A stretch of DNA of 64,000 bases from Histomonas meleagridis (Eukaryota; Parabasalia; Tritrichomonadida; Dientamoebidae): contig WSYJ01000151.1 in the NCBI GenBank assembly GCA_020186115.1, forward strand, positions 434,001-498,000, read 5' to 3'. A program made the position numbers and the translations under genes. The notes under the pieces were generated by a model that did not search any database, was not told the origin of the DNA, and saw nothing but the letters and a program-made list of their open reading frames with translations. How positions within the stretch are numbered: the stretch's first letter is position 1; each line of letters begins with the position of its first letter. Shown piece after piece: positions 16,926-56,986 of this stretch.

Positions 16926-17876
16926 CCCTGATTGATGACGGTTACATTGAAAATTCAGTGCCTCTGTCAAACTGAATTTGAGACCGTTAACATGATCAAA
17001 AGATGTAATGATGTGAATGAAAATATATTTATGGATCACAGGAACAACTAACTTTGGGATTAAAAGTAAAAATTGTATGGCAGCTTCACGTTTTACAGTC
17101 ATTTCATTAATGTTTGTTGTTGGATTTAATTTGATTTGAATACTTTCTAAACAATGAAAAGTTTTATTAAAACAAACTTAAACGCGCTTAAATTTTTTTG
17201 TTAATCTAATATCATGCAAAAGATAAGATATTTTTATATTTTTGAAGTCGTTAAAATCAAAAAAAAAATCAACCTCCATTAGTTAATATAAATAAATACA
17301 AGTCATCTAAGTAGTGTCGTTGTGATTTAGTATGCATAATAGGTTAGAACTAAATTAACACACAAAAAACACATTTATATTTTATGTTTTAAAGATATAT
17401 CACTTTAATCAAATTAATTACTATTAAAAATGATTGAACATTAACTTATTCAACCGGATTTTATCAAAGAAAAGAAATCACATTTTGTTGCAAATTATTA
17501 TACAATTGAAGAAATTCATCCGTATAAATACACATACATGTAAATTACTACTTGAACAAAAAGAAATTAATTTTAAAGAAATTAATATTTTTTCACTTGT
17601 TTTAAAATAGTGTATACTCGCCTTAAATTTAAATTCTTTTTTTGGAACTTACGCAAACTATTTCATATAGCTCTTACACATGCAATTTCTAGACATTCTA
17701 AAATTGTTGAATCATTTCGATTCTATGATTTCATAATAAAACTGATTAAAAACGTTTATTTTATACATCGGTTAAAAGTGACCTCCACAGTAATGTAAAT
17801 CTCAGATTGAATTTTTTCTAAAAATTATAAAAATTGAACTTTTTGATATAGCTTATCAAAAAGTGGCAACTTTTTG
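16926..17876. other. intergenic, divergent upstream region
   Basis: AACCG-type box just upstream of the beta-adaptin start on the minus strand (about 16938-16942), then AT-rich DNA. A 62-codon ORF at 17610-17798 has no upstream signal and was not called. A short imperfect inverted word (TTTTTGATA and TATCAAAAAG) precedes ATG 17877. Confidence 0.35.
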
Positions 17877-22987: not shown

Positions 22988-25729
22988 TTGGGGGGTCAAC
23001 AAAGCTCTAATTCCACAAAAAAATCAAGCCAAAAGAAATCAAATTTAAATACACCTAATAAAGCCATTGCCACTTTGAAAATACCGAATGGAATTCAAGA
23101 ATGTTTTAACAAATTGCAAACGATCGAAACCATTATTTTTGATTTGAACCAAGAAAACATATCATCGTCATCAAATTTAGTTATGGGTTTATATGAAAAT
23201 AATTTTCCTTATTCTTTTAATCTAGTTATTAGTCAATTAATTTATATATCATTTGTTTCACAAAAGAAAGAATTCAATATTTATTACCACTTTATGAAAA
23301 AAATTCAAAAGAAAGAAGAAAAAACTAATAAAAATAAACATAAGCTTATTGATATTTTTATAACAACAATTCTTAAAAAGAATACTCAAGAATCATTTTA
23401 TCTTCTAGAAAAATTTATTGAAAAAAAATATATTAATCCAAAAATTATACATTATGTATGTAAAAAATCATTAAACTTTATACATTATTTAAAAGAAATA
23501 GATATAAAAAATATCAATTCTAATTTACCGTTTTCAAAATATTTTATTGAACATTATGAAGAACTATCAAAGAATAATTGGGAACTTCATAAACAATTAA
23601 TTAAAGAAGGAGTAAATCCAAATGAAATCTCAAAAATAATCCGAAATGATGAAGTTGAAAATCTTCAAGAAATAGCGGCAAATGAAGAATTTGATTATAA
23701 TCAAATTATTAAACCATCGCCATATGAAAGATGTACATTTATTAATAAAGAAGAAGTTTCATTAATTGATTATGCAGCATTTTTTGGATCAGTAAAATGT
23801 TTTAAATTTTTATTACTTAATAATGCTAAAGTAAGTCAAACGTGTAAATATGCAGTTGCAGGTGGAAATCTTGAAATCATTCATTTATGTGAACAAAATC
23901 ATTCATCATTTGGAAATACATTTGATGTTACAGTTCAATTTCATCGAAATGATGTATTCCATTATCTATATGAAAATCAAATATACAAAACTGAAGATTT
24001 AACTTTGATGCTAAAGAATTGTATAACATATTATAATTATGAACTTTTTTTGTTTTTGTTTGAGAAAAATTTGAAATTGTCTATTTCATACTTATATGAA
24101 TTTGCAAAAATAGGGAATTTATTTATTGTTAAACCTTTTATTGATGAAAACCAAATATTTGATGAAATTTTGACTTATTTTTCAGAATCAGGAAATATTG
24201 AACTTGTAGAGTATATTTTAAATCAAAAAATAATTGATATTAATGCTAAAACTATTAAATACTTTTATTTATTGTATATTGTAATAATTTGCGATTTTAA
24301 AATAATATTTGGAAATATTTTAAAATATTTAATACAGCACTTATTTTGGCATCAGCATATGGTCACGTAGAAATGGTCAAATTACTTCTTGAACAAAAAG
24401 GAATTGATATTAATGCGAAAAATAATATTTGCTCAAGTATTTCCTTATTTTCAAATAATATTTGGAAATTATTTAAATTATTGAATACAGCACTTATTTT
24501 TGCATCTTTAAATGGTCATACAGAAATAGTTAAACTACTTCTTGAACAAAAAGGAATTGATATTAATGCTAAAAATATTTGTTTGTTTAATTTGATGTTA
24601 ATTTAAATAATTTTGGACAGCACTTATGTTTGCATCAAAAAATGGTCATACAGAAATAGTTAAATTACTTCTTGAACAGGAAGGAATTGATATTAATATT
24701 AAAGATATTTATTTGTTTTATTTTATATTTATTTTAATAATTTTGGAATATTTCAAAATAATATTTGGAAATTATTTAAATTATTTAAAACAACACTTAT
24801 GATAGCATCTGAATATGGTCATACAGAAATCGTTAAATTACTTCTTGAACAAGAAGGAATTGATATTAATGTTAAAGGTATTTATTTCTTTTATTTAAAA
24901 TTTGTTTTAAAAATTTAATATTTCGAAATAATATTTGGAATTTATTTAAATTATTTGAAACAGCACTTATAAAAGCATATGAAAATAGAAACATTGAAAT
25001 AGTTAAATTACTTCTTGAACAGGAAGGAATTGATATTAATGCTAAAGATATTTATTTCTTTTATTTTGGATTTATTTTAATAATTTAATATTTCAAAATA
25101 ATATTTGGAAATTATTACAAAAATTTAAAACAGCACTTATAAAAGCATCTTTTTATGGTCATACAGAAATAGTTAAATTACTTCTTGAACAAGAAGGAAT
25201 TGATATTAATGCTAAAGATATTTATTTGTTTTATTTGATATTTATTTTAATAATTTTGGATAACAAAATAATATTTGAAAATTATTTAAATTATTTAATA
25301 CAGCACTTATTTTGGCATCTGAAAATGGTCATACAGAAATAGTTAAATTACTTCTTGAACAGGAAGGAATTGATATTAATGCTAAAGATATTTATTTGTT
25401 TTATTTGATATTTATTTTAATAATTTTATATTTCAAAATAATATTTGGAAATTATTGAAATTATTTAAAACAGCACTTATTTTAGCATCTGTAAAAGGTC
25501 ATACAGAAATAGTTAAATTACTTCTTGAACAAGAAGGAATTGATATTAATGCTAAAGATATTTATTTGTTTTATTTGATATTTATTTTAATAATTTAATA
25601 TTTCGAAATAATATTTGGAAATTATTACAAAAATTTAAAACAGCACTTATGTATGCTTCTGAAAAAGGTTACACAGAAATAGTTAAATTACTTCATGAAA
25701 AAGAAGGAAATGATATAAACACCAAATAA
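22988..25729 (+). CDS. DUF3447/ankyrin-repeat protein, locus A, with interrupted repeats
   Basis: The N-terminal region (22988-24100) is a long open frame with the trichomonad DUF3447 layout: NDEVENLQEI, a YERC(T/S)FINKEEV turn, LIDYAAFFGSVKCFKFLL, YAVAGGNLEIIHLCEQN, then FHRND. About ten ankyrin units follow (e.g. ALIFASLNGHTEIVKLLLEQKGIDINAK), separated by nine stop-containing AT-rich spacers (see repeat entry). The last unit ends in-frame at TAA 25727-25729. No ATG precedes the GGQQSSNS start: the codon is TTG, so the start is lost or lies in an unseen 5' exon. If the spacers are removed the gene encodes one ankyrin protein of about 720 residues, likely a cytosolic scaffold; otherwise it is a pseudogene. 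Confidence 0.55.
24235..25640 (+). repeat. ankyrin/spacer tandem array A, 170-bp unit
   Basis: Each unit has about 87 bases of ankyrin coding sequence (from the Thr-Ala-Leu codons to Asn-Ala-Lys) and a spacer, counted here from after that Lys codon to before the next Thr codon. Spacer lengths in order: 83, 66, 43, 86, 83, 83, 83, 83, 83. Common spacer features are GATATTTATTTG at the 5' side, GGAAATTATTTAAATTATTT near the 3' end, then one variable codon before ACAGCACTT. No GT-AG boundary is shared. Confidence 0.85.
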
Positions 25730-30563: not shown

Positions 30564-33487
30564 TTAACTCTCTTTATTAACATTTTCTTGTTTACGCATT
30601 GCTTCTTGAAGCAATTCAACTACTTCTGTGTGGCCTTTTTCAATTGCAAATTTAATTAATGTGTTTGAAATATTAGAAATAATTTCCAAAAGAAATTGTG
30701 GAACAAAAAATAATTTAAAGAAATATTAATTAAAACTATGAAATTCCTTGTGCATTAACTTCAATTTCTTTATTTTCAAGCAGTAATTTAACTATTTCTG
30801 TATAACCTTTTGATGATGCTAATATAAGTGCTGTAACAAATAAATTATATAAATCCCGTTAATAACTTTGAGACATAAAATCATTTTATTAAATTTTTAA
30901 TATAACAAAGAAACGTTTTTATTATTAACATCAATATTTTTACAATTAAGAAGCATTTTAACGATTTCTATATTACCTTTTTGTGATGCATACATAAGTG
31001 CTGTATAATATTTTATAAATAAATTCCATTTCTTTTAATGAAATATTAAAGCAAAATAATAAATTTTAAAAAATTTTTTTGAAATGTTTTAGCATTAATA
31101 TCAATTCCTTCTTGTTCTAGAAGTATTTTAACGACTTCCGCATCCCCATTTTGTGAAGCAATTATTAGTGATGTATGAAATGATTAAAATAATTCCCTTA
31201 TATTATAAATATAATATTATATAAAATATTAAAATGTTTTTAACATTGATATCAATCCCTTTTTGTTTGAGTAATAATTTTACAATTTCTGCGTCTCCAC
31301 TTGAACTTGCAATTGTAAGTATTGTATTAAATATATCAAATAATTTAAAAATTTGGTTTTAAAATATTAAAACTTTGAAATAATTTCTAAATATAATTAT
31401 TAATTATTTTTATGATTGAGATTAATATCTTTTCGTTCAAGAAGTAATTTAACGATTTCAATATTATGTCTGATATATGCAATCATAAGTGCAGAATTAA
31501 ATATATCAAATAATTTCCGAATTTGATTGTAAAATATTAAATTATGATGCATATAAATATCTTGTGCATTAACATCAATGTCTTCTTGTTCAAGAAGTAT
31601 TTTAACAATTTCTATATTATTATTTTTAGATGCAAATATAAGTGCTGTACAAAATAATTAAAATAAATATCAAATATTGTTTAGAAATAAAAAATTATAA
31701 AAATAAATTCTAAATAAATCAAATAAAAATTTTTAATATTAACATCAATACCTTTTTGTTCTAGAAGTATTTTGACTATTTCGATATTACCTTTTTTAGA
31801 TGCAAATATAAGTGCTGTGCGAAATAATTAAAATACTTCCCAAATATTATTTTGAAATCTTAAATTTATAAAATATATATGAAATATTATAATTAAATGT
31901 CTTTATAATTAATATCAACTCCTTCTTGATTAAGAAGTATTTTAAATATTTCTATATGACCATTTTTAGCTGCAGAAAGAAATGCTGTTTGAAATAATTG
32001 AAATAATTTCCAAAAATTATATGGAAATTATAAATCACTATAATAAAATATAAAGAAAACAGATAAATATCTTTGGCATTGATATCAATCCCTTCTTCTC
32101 CATAAAGTAATTGAAATATTTCTTGATATCCATGTTCACATGCTTTCATAAGTGCTGTTTTAAATGAGATAAAAATTATCCAAATGATATTTGAAGATAT
32201 AAAATCATTAAAACAAATATTAAATAAAAAAATATAAATATCTCTCTCATTGATATTTATTACTTTTTGTTCTAAAATGTATTTAACAAGTTCATAATTT
32301 CCTGACTCTGAAGCAGATACTATAATATTTTTTGGCATTTGATTGGTTTGAAGAAAATATAGCACTAAATATAAATTACCGGTTCTTGCAGATTCATTAA
32401 TAATATCATCGTTAATTTTTAATACTTCTTCTTGTAAAAAAATTTCATAATTGTAATTTAAAATACATTTCTTTCCTATTTCTTCAAATTTATTAATTTC
32501 TTTAATTTTGTTTTCATAAAAAATATTTAAAGATATCATTTCGATGGAACTCAATTGCTGTTTCATATGTATCTTCAAATGATGCATAATTTTGTTCACA
32601 TAAATGAATTATCTCTAAATTTCCACCTGCAACTGCATATTTACCTGCATTAAATGCATTTGCTCCATTCATAAGTAAATATTTAAAACATTTAATAGAG
32701 CCAAAATATGCTGCATAATCAATTAATGTAACATTTTTATGATTAATAAATGAATATCTTTCATAAAGTGATGGCTCAATAATTTTATTAAAATCAAAAT
32801 TTGTTTGTGATGATATTTCTTGAAGTTTTTCGATTTCATCATTACGAATGATTTTTGCTATTTCATTCGGATTATGTCCTTCTTTAACATATTGTTTATG
32901 GAGTTCAAAATCATTTTTTGATAGTTTTTCAAAATTTTTAATAAAAGCATTATTAAATATATTATATGGATACATTCTTTTATTTTCCTCTTCTGATTTA
33001 TAGTGTGCAAAATATTTTGTTCGCATATTTTTGATGATGTTTTTATCTATTTCATTTTCTGTAATCATTTCATTAATAATATAATACGTTTCTTGTGTTT
33101 CAATTTTTATGATATATTCAAGAAATTGTTCAATAATGTTTGCATTGTTTGTATTGCTTGTATTGTTTATATTGTTTTTTTTGTTTTCTTCTTCCTTGTT
33201 TTTAATTGTTTTTAAATATTTAATGTGAATATCAAAAGAATTGTTTTGAGAAATAAATGAATTGTGAATTAATTTAATCAAAATTAAATTAAATGTATAC
33301 AAGTATTTGAAATCATAAAAATTCATTGTTTGTTGAATAGATAAATCAAAATTTTCTTCACTTAAATTAAATATAATTTTTCGAGTGTAATAAGGAATTC
33401 AATGTTAACATCAACATTTTTTGTTTCATTTTTATCAACATTGATATTTAAATTGTTGGTATTTTGCTTATTTTCTACTTGCAACAT
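30564..33487 (-). CDS. DUF3447/ankyrin-repeat protein, locus B, with interrupted repeats and two frame breaks
   Basis: Starts at ATG 33485-33487 (MLQVENKQN). The DUF3447-type N-terminal region carries the same landmarks as locus A (NDEIEKLQEI, YERYSFINHK, LIDYAAYFGSIKCFKYLL, YAVAGGNLEIIHLCEQN). Two single-base changes break it: an A-run one base short at 33377-33381 and a T-run one base long near 32520. About eleven ankyrin units follow, separated by ten spacers, ending with a terminal exon (HTEVVELLQEAMRKQ) and TAA at 30564-30566. The homopolymer breaks may be sequencing errors or true decay. Role as for locus A. Confidence 0.5.
30650..32260 (-). repeat. ankyrin/spacer tandem array B, 170-bp unit
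   Basis: Ten spacers between ankyrin units, counted as in array A: 84, 83, 83, 83, 66, 83, 64, 83, 83, 83 nt in gene order. They are much more diverged from one another than in arrays A and C, yet keep the length and the GGRAxTTATTT word near the 3' end. Several lack an AG before the next unit (for example ACATTA, TCTGCA, ACAATA). Confidence 0.8.
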
Positions 33488-37652: not shown

Positions 37653-40298
37653 ATGGATATTCAGATGCAGCCAAATGTTGACTACAACATTTTTCTTGGT
37701 ATTACTTCCACAGATGAAAACATAAGAAATTATTCCCAAAAAGTTATCTTAGAGTCAATGGATTTGCCCAATTTTGTTGATATAATTTTTAATGGACTTC
37801 AAACTATTGATAATTCAAATATCGTATTAAAGCAATCATTATCTGTCGCATTACATGAATACATTCGAACGAGATGGAAATTTCTTCCTGAGGAAATTAA
37901 GAACAAAGTCTATGATAACATTTTATTAATTTTATTTCAAATACCATATGAAATACGAAAAATTTTTATTGATATTATAGAAACAATTTTTGTTACTCAA
38001 AGTTCGCATATTGATATTCTATTAAATGTCTGTTTTTCACAACTCAGTTCAACGATATTTAATATTGACACATCATTAAACCTATTAAATGAATTTGTAT
38101 TTTATAATTATATAATACAATCGAAAGTCACAGAAGAAAGGGAATTATTTGCACGGAAACTTATACCAATTTTATACATAATATCAAATGAACTTATGAA
38201 GAGTCAATTCCAAGACATCTTTTCATCAATAATATCATCGATATCTGAAATTATCAAAATCTTTATACAAAAGTTAAATACGATATATGACATGCAAGAG
38301 TTATATGAGATAATAATTCATTTATCATTAGCATTAAGACTTCCTAATAAAAACATTCAATCATTTACTAAGTTAACTGATTTAATTTGCATGACAATCA
38401 TTAAATTTAAATCAATACAAACATTACCACAAAACTTAATCATATTTGGAACGAATTTCCATCAAAACATTATACCAATCATAACGCAATCGATATTTAC
38501 TTTATTTAGTAATAATCAAAACGAAACATTTATATACACAAAATTATTTATTATTATAAAAACATTAATCCAATGTCATATTAACAAAGAAATATTTCTA
38601 AATGAAAACTTCATTCGTAACATTCTAATTCCGTCATGTTATCTAAGTGAAGAAGACTTAACTTTATTTAATGAAATCCCAGAACAATATATATACTTTA
38701 ATTATTTAATTGAAGAAAACATCAAAGATATATCACTTCGTATTATCATAACTCGAATTATAAAATTTATTATTGATAATAATTATATTGATATCATAAA
38801 TTTATTATTAAATATATCATTAGAACCATCAAAAGAACCGAAAGAATTCGAAGCGAAAATATTTATAATTTCAAGTATTACTTCATATTATTCAGAATCA
38901 TATGAATTATATCAAATGTTAATGAATATAATAATAACAAATCCATCGATTTATATCCAAGCTACAACGATATATGCGTTACGAAGTTTTAAGATCGAAA
39001 AAGAAAATCGTAACAAACTCAGTATTAATATTCTCTTACAAAGTAATAATGATGTCATTAAGTTAATGTCAATTAATTTATTCCAAACAACATTTGATAT
39101 ATTTCATTCTCAATCGATTATACCATATTTAAATGAACTATTAAACACATTATTACAATTAATATATACAACAAAAGATTATAAGCCAATAGAATTAATA
39201 TGTTTATTAATATATCAATATACTGATAAATATATTCCATACTTTGATAAAATCATTAATTATATTATCGAGTTATATAAAATGATAACAAATTCGGAAA
39301 ACTTTGATTTTAATGCTAATAATCAATTATTAAAATGTATTCAAAAGTTTATAACTTCAGATTTAATTGATTCGAATCTTTATAATGTTTACATAGAGAA
39401 AATCATCAATTTCTGTATTGAAATATTATCAAATGAAAGATGTGAACAATCATTTTTAACGACAATCGAAGTCATCGAAAGTATTATGATGAAATATGAT
39501 GAAATTACAGAACTTAACATAAACATAATGAAATATTTAATTGAATTCATAGCTCCACAAATTAATGAATCGTTTTATCTAATACCAAATATATACGAAA
39601 TATTTTCAATTGTCATCGCAAAGAAAAATTTTTTTAATGTAATTAATGACGAATTCATTATATCATTAATTAATTTTAGTGAAACAATTTATATAAATAT
39701 TAATAATACCAAAGTGAAGACTTCGATTTTGTTGTTATATTCATTACTAATACAATATGGAAAATGTATAAATTTAATCGAAAAAGGTTTAATATTACTA
39801 CAACAAAACGAAGACTTTTCAATATTTACGTCCGCGTTCTGTTTAATGTCGTCCGCGTTACTGACAGCAGCTGACCAAATAATACCAATGATAAATGAAA
39901 ACGTTTTAGTGAATGTAAACGCAAATTGGAAACACATACAAAACGCTGAAGTCAATGTAATCAACTTATGCTTCATCGGATTGTGCGTTTTGGCGAAGTA
40001 TGGAAACAATTTGTCGTTTCTGAACGCGTCGATGATGCTGAAGTTATTAATCGAGAAAAGAAACGCCGAAACTTTGGAAGAAGTCGACGACGAATATCTG
40101 CTCAGCAACATAAACAGTTTCATCGAAAACGAAGAGGAGTACGAATACTTGGACCTGCCCGACTTCCACTTCCCGTCGGACGGCGTGGACGTGCTCGAGG
40201 TGTACAGAGATGTCGCGTTCGGGAGGAACATGTTCCGGACATTGCCGCTCGAGCTGCAGCAGGAAGTCAGCGAACTGCTCAGTGAAGGCGCTAATTAA
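37653..40298 (+). CDS. importin-beta-like karyopherin (HEAT-repeat nuclear transport receptor)
   Basis: 881 residues of tandem helices with no other domain. The N-terminal pattern (NIRNYSQKVILES, then LKQSLSVALHEYIRTRWKFLPEEIKNKVYDNI) is that of the importin-N region of Imp7/Imp9/CSE1-type karyopherins, followed by roughly eighteen HEAT-like units and an acidic C-terminus (ENEEEYEYLDLPDF). Such proteins carry cargo through nuclear pores under Ran-GTP. Cargo cannot be told. TCATTA at 37629-37634 may serve as Inr. The last 450 bases shift sharply to GC-rich codons. Confidence 0.65.
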   Translation: MDIQMQPNVDYNIFLGITSTDENIRNYSQKVILESMDLPNFVDIIFNGLQTIDNSNIVLKQSLSVALHEYIRTRWKFLPEEIKNKVYDNILLILFQIPYEIRKIFIDIIETIFVTQSSHIDILLNVCFSQLSSTIFNIDTSLNLLNEFVFYNYIIQSKVTEERELFARKLIPILYIISNELMKSQFQDIFSSIISSISEIIKIFIQKLNTIYDMQELYEIIIHLSLALRLPNKNIQSFTKLTDLICMTIIKFKSIQTLPQNLIIFGTNFHQNIIPIITQSIFTLFSNNQNETFIYTKLFIIIKTLIQCHINKEIFLNENFIRNILIPSCYLSEEDLTLFNEIPEQYIYFNYLIEENIKDISLRIIITRIIKFIIDNNYIDIINLLLNISLEPSKEPKEFEAKIFIISSITSYYSESYELYQMLMNIIITNPSIYIQATTIYALRSFKIEKENRNKLSINILLQSNNDVIKLMSINLFQTTFDIFHSQSIIPYLNELLNTLLQLIYTTKDYKPIELICLLIYQYTDKYIPYFDKIINYIIELYKMITNSENFDFNANNQLLKCIQKFITSDLIDSNLYNVYIEKIINFCIEILSNERCEQSFLTTIEVIESIMMKYDEITELNINIMKYLIEFIAPQINESFYLIPNIYEIFSIVIAKKNFFNVINDEFIISLINFSETIYININNTKVKTSILLLYSLLIQYGKCINLIEKGLILLQQNEDFSIFTSAFCLMSSALLTAADQIIPMINENVLVNVNANWKHIQNAEVNVINLCFIGLCVLAKYGNNLSFLNASMMLKLLIEKRNAETLEEVDDEYLLSNINSFIENEEEYEYLDLPDFHFPSDGVDVLEVYRDVAFGRNMFRTLPLELQQEVSELLSEGAN

Positions 40299-40557: not shown

Positions 40558-41045
40558 ATAATGTTTTCATAACTTGTTGCGTTCAATAATTATTTAAAAA
40601 TTATTTAAAAATACAAAATATTGTTATAATATTGTTAATAAATTTGTATGATTATTATATTATAATGTTTTCATATAAATCGTTGCGTTCAATAATTATT
40701 TAGAAATAAAAATATTGTTAATAAATTTGTATAACTATTATATTATTATGTTTCCATATAACTTGTTGTGTTCAACAACTATTTAAAAATAAAAATATTG
40801 TTAATAAATTTGTATGATTATTATATTATAATGTTTTCATATAAATCGTTGCGTTCAATAATTATTTAGAAATAAAAATATTGTTAATAAATTTGTATAA
40901 CTATTATATTATTATGTTTCCATATAACTTGTTGTGTTCAACAACTATTTAAAAATAAAAATATTGTTAATAAATTTGTATGATTATTATATTATAATGT
41001 TTTCATATAAATTGTTGTGTTCAATGATTATTTAGATATTAGAAT
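40558..41045. repeat. 83-bp minisatellite with alternating monomers
   Basis: Six copies start at about 40558, 40662, 40745, 40828, 40911 and 40994. Two monomer types alternate (ATAATGTTTTCATATAAATCG and ATTATGTTTCCATATAACTTG starts), giving a 166-bp higher-order unit. The first copy carries about 20 extra bases and the last decays at its end. AT-rich, non-coding. Confidence 0.85.
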
Positions 41046-41544
41046 ATTGTTAATTACATATTTATACAGTTTGTATCTGAAATGATCAGAACCGCTGATT
41101 TCCCAAACAAAAATACTCAATTCATATGCCGATCAAATTACATAGAAGTATATCGTATGAGTAAAGCTCACAATCGAGCAACGAACATAGAATTAATATA
41201 ATATGTTTATCTTGGTTAGTTCTGCTCTTATCTGTGATAATACATTTATCTTCATAAAAAATAGAAAAAAAAAAAAGGACGTTAAGTCATTTCAATTTAT
41301 TCTTTTTGGTGAAAATTAACGTTCAAATATTTGCCAAATATTTTTTTGTTAACGTCATCGAAAAAATTGATTATAACCAAAATTGAGTATATTCTGTGAT
41401 TTACTTGACAAAAATTATTAAAATTTGCTCCACAGACTTGTCACTTTTATTTGACTTTCAATGGTTTATGCATAGAATAATCATCAGAAACCAAATATTT
41501 TTGACACAAATTTCAATACTTTCAGAGAAAATTTGTCGTTTGTC

Positions 41545-54094: not shown

Positions 54095-56986
54095 ATGTCT
54101 GAAAACACCATGAAAAACTCAAAAGATGATATCAAATCACAGAGCATCGAAGTCAAATTACTAACGAAGCTTGAACGAATCATTTTTAATTTAAATAAAG
54201 AAAATTTTGATTTATCAATTGAAAAAACAATGAAATTATTTGACCTAAATTTTCCATATACATATAATTCAAATATTTGCATTTTAGTTTATAGTGCATT
54301 TTATTCAAAGAAAAATGAGAATGATATTTATATTGATTATCTAGAAACTATTCAAACAAAAGAAGAAGAACTCAATCAAGATAATCCTAAAATTATAGAA
54401 ATGTTCAAAGATTATATAAGTAAAATTAATTCACAAGAATCATATTATTTAATTGAACAAATGATTGAACGAAATTTAATTGATAAAAGCATTACTGCAA
54501 AACTTGCAAAACTTTCAAACTATTTTTCGCACTATAAAACAGAAGGATGCCGCCAGGAAAATTATAGATGGAATTATAGTGTAACTGAACTTGAGTTTAA
54601 AAGAAATTATGAAGAACTTTCAAAGAATGATTGGGAACTTCATAAAAAATATGTTAAAGAAGGACATAATCCAAATGAAATTGCAAAAATCATTCGAAAT
54701 GACGAAATAGAAAAACTTCAAGAAATATCATCACAAACAAATTTTAATTTTAATCAAACTATTAAACCATCACTTTATGAAAGATGTTCATTTATTAATA
54801 ATGGTGAAGTTCCATTAATTGATTATGCAGCATTTTTTGGATCTGTTAAATGTTTTAAATTTTTACTTATGAATAATGCAAACATAAATGATACAGGAAA
54901 ATATGCAGTTGCAGGTGGAAATGAAGAAATCATTCATTTATGTGAACAAAATCATTCATCATTTGAATATGCATATGGAATCGCAATTAAATTTCATCAA
55001 AATAATATTTTTAAATATATTTATGAAAATAAAATAGAAAAATTGTATGGATTTGAAGATAATATTATTAGACGTTTTGTTCATTGGGGTGGCAAATTTA
55101 ATACTTTTTCATCTGATATAGTACAAAAAGATATCAATAGTTTGGGATCTTTGTGTATTACAAATGGAAGTTACGAGATTTTTTTGTTTTTAGAAAACTC
55201 TTTAGATCTAAAAATTAATCAGGATTTGATTGATAAAGCTGCTAAAATTGGGAACTTATATCTTGTTAAATATTTTCTGCAAAAGAATCAAATTCCAAAA
55301 GATATTTTGCTTAAATCTATAAAATCAAAAAATATTGAACTTGTTAAATATATTTTAGAACAAAATGCAATTGATATTAATGAAAAAGATTTTTATTTGT
55401 TGTATTTGATATTTGTTTTAACGATTTTCTATTTCAAAATAATATTTGGAAATTATTTAAATTTTTTAAAACAGCACTTATGAAAGCATCTAAAAGTGGT
55501 TCTATGGAAATAGTTAAATTACTTCTTGAACAAGAAGGAATTGATATAAATGCTAAAGATATTAATTAGTTTTTTTTAATATTTATTTTAACGATTTTAT
55601 ATTTCAAAATAATATTTGGAAATTATGTAAAATATTTTGGACAGCATTTAAGCTGGCGCTTGATAATTGTCATGGCGATATTGCGAAATTACTTCAAGAA
55701 CAAGGAACTGATATCATTTCTAAAGATATTTGTTTGTTTCATTTGATATTTATATGAAAAGTTTATGATTTCATTTTAATATTTGGAAATTATTTAATTT
55801 TATTTGTACAGAACTAATGAAAGCATCTGAATATGGTAATATAGAATTAGTGAAAATGCTTCTTGAACAAGAAGGAACTAATGTTAATGATAAAGATATT
55901 TATTTGTTTTAATTGATATTTATTTTAATATTTTGAAATTTTAAATTTATATTTGGAAATTGTTTTAAATGTTTTGGACAGCACTTATGTATGCAACAGA
56001 AAATGAACAAATAGAAATAGTTGAATTACTTCTTGAACAAGAAGGAATTGATATTAATGCTAAAGATATTTATTAATATTATTTGTTGTTGTTTTTATTA
56101 ACTTGATATTTCAATTTAAAAATTGGGATATGTTCAAATTATTTAAAACAGTTCTTATGATTGCATCCGAGAAAGGAAACATTGAAATTGTGGAATTACT
56201 TCTTGATCAAGAAGGAATTGATGTTAATGCTCAAGATATTTATTTGTTTTAAATGATATTTATTTTATTTCTTTGATATTTTAAAATAATAATTGGGAAT
56301 TATTAAAAATATTTTGGACGGCACTTATCTTAGCATCTTTAGAGGGACTTGATGATATTGTTGAATTACTTCTTGAACAAGAAGGAATTAATATTAATGC
56401 TAAAAATATTTATTTATTTTATTAAAAGTTTATTTTAACAATTTTGGATTTCAAAATAATATTTGGAAATTATTTAAATTATTTGAAACGGCACTTATCT
56501 TAGCATCTAAATATGGTAATCGTAAAGTGGTTGAATTACTTCTTATGCAAGAAGGAATTGACATTAATGCTAAAGATACATATTTATTATATTTCAAATA
56601 TATTTTAGTATTTTAATATTTCAAAAATAATTTTGAAGATCATTTAAATAATTTGAAACCTCTATTCTCGAAGCTGCCGAAAATTGTCATACAGAAATAG
56701 TTAAATTGCTTCTTGATCAAGAAGGAATTGATATTAATGAAGATATTTATTTATTTTATTTGGTATTTGTTTTAATGATTTTATATTTCAAAATTTTGTT
56801 TGGAAATTATTTAAATTATTTTGGACAGCAAAACCAAAGTTTATAACATTTCCATATGAAAAAAGACATAATGAAATAGTTCAATTAATTACTGAAAAAA
56901 TCTCTAAGAAAAATTCTGATGATATTGTTCCAACGAACGAAAATAACTCAATGTCTTCAACCGAAATCCAAAATAATAATCTTTGA
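54095..56986 (+). CDS. DUF3447/ankyrin-repeat protein, locus C, with interrupted repeats
   Basis: ATG 54095 opens a 450-codon frame with the DUF3447 landmarks (NDEIEKLQEI, YERCSFINNGEV, LIDYAAFFGSVKCFKFLL, YAVAGGNEEIIHLCEQN), intact here. After it come about nine ankyrin-type units with nine spacers, every one 83 nt. The final block reads in-frame after the last spacer into a non-ankyrin tail (HNEIVQLITEKISKK, then Ser/Asn-rich) and a TGA at 56984-56986. A proper terminal exon after stop-containing spacers argues that the spacers are removed or skipped. It would be a cytosolic scaffold of about 780 residues if so. Confidence 0.6.
55393..56830 (+). repeat. ankyrin/spacer tandem array C, 170-bp unit
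   Basis: Nine spacers, all 83 nt from the Lys-equivalent codon to the next Thr codon. They contain stops in different frames (for example ATTAATTAG, TTTGTTTTAA). The boundary before the next unit is ACAG in most, but ACGG twice and ACCT once; those changes keep Thr and destroy an AG, so the Thr codon looks coding. Confidence 0.85.

What the first reader, a model, noticed from the sequence alone, without database searches (positions are those of the whole stretch)
24235..25640. Ankyrin repeats separated by stop-containing spacers of constant 83-nt length (array A)
Every ankyrin unit is followed by an AT-rich spacer that breaks the frame. Counted by eye from the conserved Lys codon to the next Thr codon, the spacers are 83, 66, 43, 86 and then 83 five times. 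The lengths fall in all three classes modulo 3, so they cannot be translated through by one rule, while the coding parts stay about 87 nt and in frame. The last unit ends in a proper stop. Known T. vaginalis intron signals (GTATGT and ACTAACACACAG) are absent. Candidates: many unusual mini-introns, ribosome bypassing of the kind seen with yeast mitochondrial byps elements, or a decayed array.
Basis: partly seen in the sequence, partly recalled or inferred. Interest (0 to 1): 0.88.

Follow-up and report, generated by a model that had tools for sequence, protein, structure and literature searches.

The report
Ankyrin codons split by 17-base inserts
In a poultry gut parasite, a large family of ankyrin genes carries 17-base AT-rich inserts between successive single codons; leaving the inserts out gives a textbook protein, which points to a way of removing or skipping them that I could not find described.

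Summary
The window is Histomonas meleagridis, not T. vaginalis. Each 'spacer' is a five-codon ankyrin linker (D-x-x-G-x before TAL) whose codons are kept apart by 17-nt AT-rich elements; the modal 83 nt is five codons and four elements. One rule explains 83, 66, 43 and 86 (4, 3, 2, 4 elements) and all classes modulo 3. At the five predicted codon offsets 0 of 215 distinct 83-nt linkers has a stop, and the fourth codon is Gly in 170. A parser tested on held-out loci reads 302 of 340 linkers, 0 of 340 shuffled, 0 of 340 reversed. In-register linkers raise Pfam Ank_2 to 202.7 bits against 112-132 in four wrong registers. The linker core has about 4,720 near-matches genome-wide (control 1). The elements lack GT..AG (0 of 860), show no consistent fold in 5 tested, and take-off and landing triplets rarely match. 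Most likely they are excised from RNA as ultrashort, non-canonical intron-like elements. That last step is inferred: I reached no cDNA or peptide data.

The parts
22988..24163 (+). Array A gene: N-terminal part (DUF3447/ankyrin) in the open frame 22988-24370; true start codon not resolved
24164..25729 (+). Array A: ten ankyrin cores (87 nt each) with nine element-bearing linkers (33 elements in all), ending in a stop codon
24251..24333 (+). Linker 1, 83 nt, 4 elements, codons T-I-A-G-N
24421..24486 (+). Linker 2, 66 nt, 3 elements, codons N-N-L-G-N
24574..24616 (+). Linker 3, 43 nt, 2 elements, codons N-D-W
24704..24789 (+). Linker 4, 86 nt, 4 elements, codons D-Y-W-N-G-K
24877..24959 (+). Linker 5, 83 nt, 4 elements, codons G-K-N-G-E
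25047..25129 (+). Linker 6, 83 nt, 4 elements, codons D-W-N-G-K
25217..25299 (+). Linker 7, 83 nt, 4 elements, codons D-D-W-E-N
25387..25469 (+). Linker 8, 83 nt, 4 elements, codons D-D-Y-G-K
25557..25639 (+). Linker 9, 83 nt, 4 elements (25560-25576, 25580-25596, 25600-25616, 25620-25636), codons D-D-N-G-K
30573..32329 (-). Array B: eleven cores, ten linkers; 7 linkers give a full reading, of which one scores below zero; linkers of 84, 64 and 85 nt do not parse with exact 17-nt elements
54095..55300 (+). Array C gene: N-terminal part (DUF3447/ankyrin) up to the first core
55301..56747 (+). Array C: nine cores, eight linkers, seven of them parsed as five codons and four 17-nt elements; the eighth was measured as 80 nt because my 87-nt cut of that core took in its linker's first codon (GAT)

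Best explanation
The spacers are ankyrin linkers whose codons are held apart by 17-nt AT-rich elements. Between its core and the next TAL each repeat needs D-x-x-G-x; in the DNA up to four 17-nt elements sit between those five codons, strictly between codons. The product lacks the elements, so the protein is a DUF3447/ankyrin N-terminal part followed by ordinary ankyrin repeats with variable surface residues. Shown by sequence: the codon/element register, its conservation and its genome-wide scale. Inferred: the elements are excised after transcription as ultrashort intron-like sequences by a system that uses neither GT..AG nor the usual trichomonad 3' motif, and that may recognise fixed length and AT-rich ATTT-like ends. 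I put 'elements are left out of the product' at about 0.85 and 'by RNA excision' at about 0.6.
For: 0 of 215 distinct 83-nt linkers has a stop at offsets 0/20/40/60/80; D or N in 188 of 215 at offset 0, Gly in 170 of 215 at offset 60 against at most 16 at any other offset. Reshuffling the third base among linkers makes on average 7.9, 12.1, 1.9 and 16.7 stops at codons 2-5 against 0 observed, so these triplets behave as codons. 302 of 340 linkers parse in locus-wise cross-validation, 0 shuffled, 0 reversed. In the 66-nt class the loss is exactly one element: element 1 in 38 and element 2 in 3 of the 41 (of 42) accepted. Gene L033 mixes uninterrupted 15-nt linkers with linkers holding one (twice) or three 17-mers. 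Pfam Ank_2 202.7 bits in register against 118.0 without linkers and 112.3-131.5 in wrong registers. Recent pairs: 0 of 276 differences at second positions of structural codons, 19 of 816 in elements, 8 of 36 and 9 of 36 in the two most variable linker codons.
Against: No transcript or peptide was seen. No splice signal was found: 0 of 860 elements are GT..AG, 40 start GT, 2 end AG. Four 17-nt gaps with single-codon exons would be extreme for a spliceosome. 36 of 350 linkers do not parse with exact 17-nt elements, among them 9 of 84 nt and 4 of 85 nt. Whole-core pN/pS is 0.66-0.92 in bins of 200 or more pairs; codons classed as structural give an omega-like ratio of 0.71, and recent pairs show 7 synonymous against 8 non-synonymous changes there. 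5 of 350 cores contain a stop.
Confidence: 0.6

Rival explanations
1. Translational skipping: the mRNA keeps the elements and the ribosome jumps 17 nt after each linker codon.
For: Near-constant element length and absence of splice signals.
Against: Take-off codon equals the last triplet of the element in only 22 of 860; no consistent fold in 5 linkers, although one has z -2.1; array A would need 33 jumps in one protein.
Confidence: 0.14
2. Decayed arrays: the genes end in the first linker and the repeats downstream are pseudogenic.
For: In the search with relative P0001 the rows that reach its C-terminus end at residues 409-414, where the first linker begins; weak overall dN/dS; some copies have broken frames.
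Against: No stops at linker codons in 215 of 215; 345 of 350 cores without a stop, with the caveat that cores were picked by similarity; linker codons vary like ankyrin surface positions while the Gly is kept; 0 of 276 differences at second positions of structural codons.
Confidence: 0.11
3. Silent cassette store: the arrays are not translated but donate variable repeats by recombination to uninterrupted ankyrin genes.
For: Variable codons bracketed by conserved AT-rich 17-mers; ankyrin loci with uninterrupted 15-nt linkers exist (L030, L031).
Against: Uninterrupted loci were few among those examined and their cores differ from the array type; each array follows its own DUF3447 ORF in the window. 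Gene conversion was not tested.
Confidence: 0.07
4. One ordinary intron per linker, taking out the whole spacer.
For: The genome has an intact Prp8-type ORF and conventional-looking introns.
Against: The Gly and the variable linker codons would be discarded, yet they are conserved as codons and raise ankyrin scores; no GT..AG element; the Thr codon next to the 3' end varies as ACA/ACG/ACC/TCT, so ACAG is not a fixed splice site.
Confidence: 0.05
5. The spacers are translated as hydrophobic inserts, with a frameshift where needed.
For: 14 of 31 66-nt spacers in the first set are open in frame.
Against: 17 of those 31 hold an in-frame stop; of 247 83-nt spacers 151 have a stop in the upstream frame and 128 in the downstream frame, spread over many offsets.
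Confidence: 0.03

Closest known systems
Tiny spliceosomal introns of Stentor coeruleus (15-16 nt; PMC9505925, passages seen)
   Same: Length range, AU-richness, tight length constraint
   Different: Stentor introns start GU and end AG; these elements never have both ends, and stand four in a row between single codons
Type B introns of Trichomonas vaginalis (23-25 nt; PMC12316389, abstract and passages seen)
   Same: Same phylum, very short, T-rich
   Different: Those carry GT/AG and an extended branch/3' motif; T. vaginalis genes have one intron each
Programmed bypassing: T4 gene 60 and byps of yeast mitochondria (byps recalled; PMC11194080, abstract in a search listing)
   Same: Non-coding gaps of fixed place inside reading frames
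   Different: Here take-off and landing triplets rarely match and no consistent fold was found; scale is thousands in a nuclear genome
DUF3447-ankyrin proteins of Tritrichomonas and relatives (P0025 T. musculus; P0022, P0188 unnamed)
   Same: Same domain type and linker pattern such as D-F-S-G-K
   Different: The linkers visible in those proteins are uninterrupted, so the elements look gained in the Histomonas lineage and close relatives (inference)

Membership tests
Spliceosomal intron (U2 type) | GT..AG ends | tested here: not met
   0 of 860 elements GT..AG; 40 start GT, 2 end AG
Spliceosomal intron (trichomonad) | 3' branch/acceptor motif CTAACACACAG | tested here: not met
   An 11-nt motif ending in AG cannot close elements of which 2 of 860 end AG; CTAA occurs in 16 of 860. 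The motif is found 11 times in the genome, control 4
Intron in the broad sense | Absent from mature RNA | not testable with these tools
   No cDNA reached
Intron in the broad sense | Leaving it out restores a conserved protein; clean loss in paralogues | tested here: met
Programmed ribosome bypass | Matching take-off and landing codons | tested here: not met
   22 of 860
Programmed ribosome bypass | Stable hairpin in or beside the gap | tested here: inconclusive
   5 linkers folded: z -0.02, 1.34, -0.47, 2.03, -2.14
Ankyrin repeat | Core and D-x-x-G-x-T-A-L linker | tested here: met
   Pfam Ank, Ank_2, Ank_4, Ank_5 above cut-off for conceptual repeats
Pseudogene array | Stops and frame damage accumulate in coding parts | tested here: not met
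   0 of 215 linkers, 5 of 350 cores; similarity-picked cores would miss badly damaged ones

The most novel reading that the evidence does not exclude
A nuclear genome with of the order of 17,000 intervening sequences of fixed 17-nt length, without spliceosomal ends, that split ankyrin linkers codon by codon and are removed from RNA (or skipped by the ribosome) by an undescribed, length-measuring system.
Probability: 0.5. Interest if true: 0.97.

Novelty: categorically new. Interest (0 to 1): 0.93.

Why it matters
If true, a parasite with 573 annotated introns (virulent strain, PMC8529796, passages seen) carries thousands of unannotated intervening sequences near the lower size limit of known introns and without their signals, and a large, variable ankyrin family has been cut short in its gene models (P0186, P0187 and P0017 are examples). 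It poses a sharp question: what joins single codons across 17-nt gaps? Existing RNA-seq could show whether the joins occur.

Tried and rejected
Rejected: a 3' splice site at ACAG (the Thr codon varies); one intron per spacer (would discard the Gly and the variable codons); translation through the spacers (stops); shifted element boundaries (shifts -1 and +1 give 186 and 19 of 215 linkers with stops; shift +3 gives no stop either, but no Gly).

Led nowhere: a protein search with conceptual repeats gave 7,160 mostly generic ankyrins, 120 listed; a search by the N-terminal part for a full-length uninterrupted relative gave 21 proteins, of which those closer than P0022 (32% identity) are all at most 532 aa. 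An ORF-fusion scan of held DNA found mostly ankyrin linkers; motif-bearing places were 159 for length 17 but also 145 for 11 and 117 for 20, so it is no evidence for 17, and it did not show elements in other gene families. The DNA of the ENA relatives was not available. A paper search on short introns gave one unrelated paper. dN/dS is a weak argument here.

Counts: the 350 linkers leave out seven overlapping loci by hand but still hold one array twice (L005/L028); one search drops L005 and gives distinct counts. L001/L003 are copies, L023/L024 look like copies. Cores were picked by a similarity threshold.

Full report
WHAT IS THERE. The window holds three genes with a DUF3447/ankyrin N-terminal ORF followed by 87-nt ankyrin cores separated by AT-rich spacers: A (+, to 25729), B (-, 32329-30573) and C (+, 55301-56747). 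The genome held for the window has 43.28 Mb in 121 contigs. A protein named as Histomonas meleagridis has a longest contig of 984,133 bases, the length of C74 here, so the species is H. meleagridis.

SCALE. A core motif occurs exactly 152 times in the genome (67 + 85; control 0). I fetched 20 regions; of 203 spacings measured there 143 are 83 nt and 31 are 66 nt. Over the loci held at that point (seven overlapping ones left out) 350 linkers were cut, 247 of 83 nt and 42 of 66 nt. A 28-nt piece of the linker core matches 2,365 + 2,355 places with up to 3 mismatches, the backwards control 1 + 0. With 1,188 elements in 314 parsed linkers this suggests of the order of 17,000 elements genome-wide (inference; the context of those places was not inspected). 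A search with a relative's protein (P0001) gave 117 matches; the rows that reach its C-terminus end at residues 409-414, where the first linker begins.

THE DECODE. In an alignment of 135 distinct 83-nt spacers, two of the three bases just before TAL are among the least conserved while the TTT before them is nearly invariant. In the 13 most diverged, non-redundant spacers a GG stands out at offsets 60-61. Spacing by 20 then shows codons at offsets 0, 20, 40, 60, 80 with 17-nt elements between them. At those offsets: D/N in 188 of 215, N/K/D/E in 161 of 215, a mixed position, Gly in 170 of 215, a mixed position; 0 of 215 linkers has a stop. This is the canonical ankyrin linker (recalled; supported by Pfam below). 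Of the registers from -9 to +9 only shift 0 has both no stop and the Gly.

LENGTHS EXPLAINED. Array A reads TIAGN (83), NNLGN (66), NDW (43), DYWNGK (86), then GKNGE, DWNGK, DDWEN, DDYGK, DDNGK (83 each). Since 17 is 2 modulo 3, the number of elements sets the length class. In all, 314 of 350 linkers parse with exact 17-nt elements and no reversed or shuffled control does. With training and test loci kept apart 302 of 340 parse (271 of 307 distinct); with the window held out, 21 of its 25 measured linkers parse, including all 9 of array A. The 36 failures are 9 of 84 nt, 4 of 85 nt, 4 of 83 nt, 3 of 80 nt and 16 of other lengths. The 80-nt linker of C was mis-cut by one codon; some others may be homopolymer errors or 16/18-nt elements, which I could not decide.

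LOSS AND GAIN. Of the 42 66-nt linkers, a position-specific model trained on the 83-nt class accepts 41: 38 lack element 1 and 3 lack element 2, cleanly; 0 of 210 shuffles pass. Gene L033 (C55) has ordinary 15-nt linkers, two linkers with one 17-mer and one with three; a fourth interrupted linker there is one base too long for the rule. In the relatives P0022, P0025 and P0188 the linkers I looked at are uninterrupted. Six ENA relatives at 45-56% identity (P0001, P0002, P0006, P0010, P0012, P0016) end within one residue after the first linker codon, P0003 reads into a tail of the expected 83-nt shape, P0008 reads through a 66-nt type linker, and P0004 has an uninterrupted first linker. So the feature is probably not confined to one species; their DNA was not seen.

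PROTEIN-LEVEL EVIDENCE. Pfam Ank_2 scores 202.7 bits for a five-repeat piece of C with in-register linkers, 118.0 with linkers left out, and 112.3, 123.7, 116.9 and 131.5 in four wrong registers. For a four-repeat piece of A, Ank_5 scores 131.3 against 72.2 and Ank_2 124.9 against 107.1. In 12 reciprocal-best inter-locus pairs the differences are 19 of 816 sites in elements, 0 of 276 at second and 8 of 276 at first and 7 of 276 at third positions of structural codons, 8 of 36 in the third linker codon (c2) and 9 of 36 in the last (c4). Against this, pN/pS over whole cores is 0.66-0.92 in bins of 200 or more pairs, codons classed as structural by amino-acid entropy give an omega-like 0.71, and structural codons of the recent pairs show 7 synonymous and 8 non-synonymous changes. 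Surface diversification and recombination probably blur the test (inference).

MECHANISM. The genome has an intact ORF of 2,333 aa with the Prp8 U6-binding domain and conventional-looking introns: GTATGT lies within 200 nt upstream of CTAACACACAG at 6 of 11 sites. The 17-mers share none of this: 0 of 860 GT..AG, 94% A+T, most often ATTT or AATT at the start and ATTT at the end. Ribosome re-pairing is unlikely (22 of 860 matching triplets) and 5 folded linkers show no consistent structure, though one reaches z -2.1. I therefore favour RNA excision by an atypical, perhaps length-measuring process, and mark it as inference.

LITERATURE. Known tiny introns keep GT..AG: Stentor 15-16 nt (PMC9505925, passages seen), T. 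vaginalis 23-25 nt (PMC12316389, abstract and passages seen). The Histomonas genome paper reports 573 and 638 introns in its two strains, at most one per gene, and does not contain the word ankyrin in the main text (PMC8529796, passages seen). I found no report of the present feature in the held library with the searches, seen as listings apart from the papers named; most subscription papers are not held.

Noticed in passing
window 32514-33380 (-): The N-terminal part of gene B is split into more than one frame near homopolymer runs: assembly error or decay. Paralogues with an open N-terminal frame exist.
   Followed up: partly
window 17530-17740 (+): A lone, degenerate ankyrin-like repeat with a 17-mer that resembles those of L033.
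   Followed up: partly
window 40628-41054: A non-ankyrin tandem repeat with period 83 (or 166) nt, 87-97% matches; the shared number 83 may be coincidence.
   Followed up: no
window 37653-40298 (+): An 881-aa ORF without a Pfam match at E 0.001.
   Followed up: no
L001 and L003 (C1, about 836 kb and 847 kb): Two near-identical copies of one array on opposite strands that differ in frame-breaking single-base and A-run differences.
   Followed up: no
L050, L051, L052, L055, L058, L059: Conventional-looking intron signals, GTATGT within 200 nt upstream of CTAACACACAG.
   Followed up: partly
P0020 (Tritrichomonas foetus TRFO_21112): An AT-rich-looking insert (VYVFNLFFIRTYHHQFNFFIFGG) before an ankyrin linker, of a length that does not fit the 17-nt rule; perhaps an annotated-through intron.
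   Followed up: no
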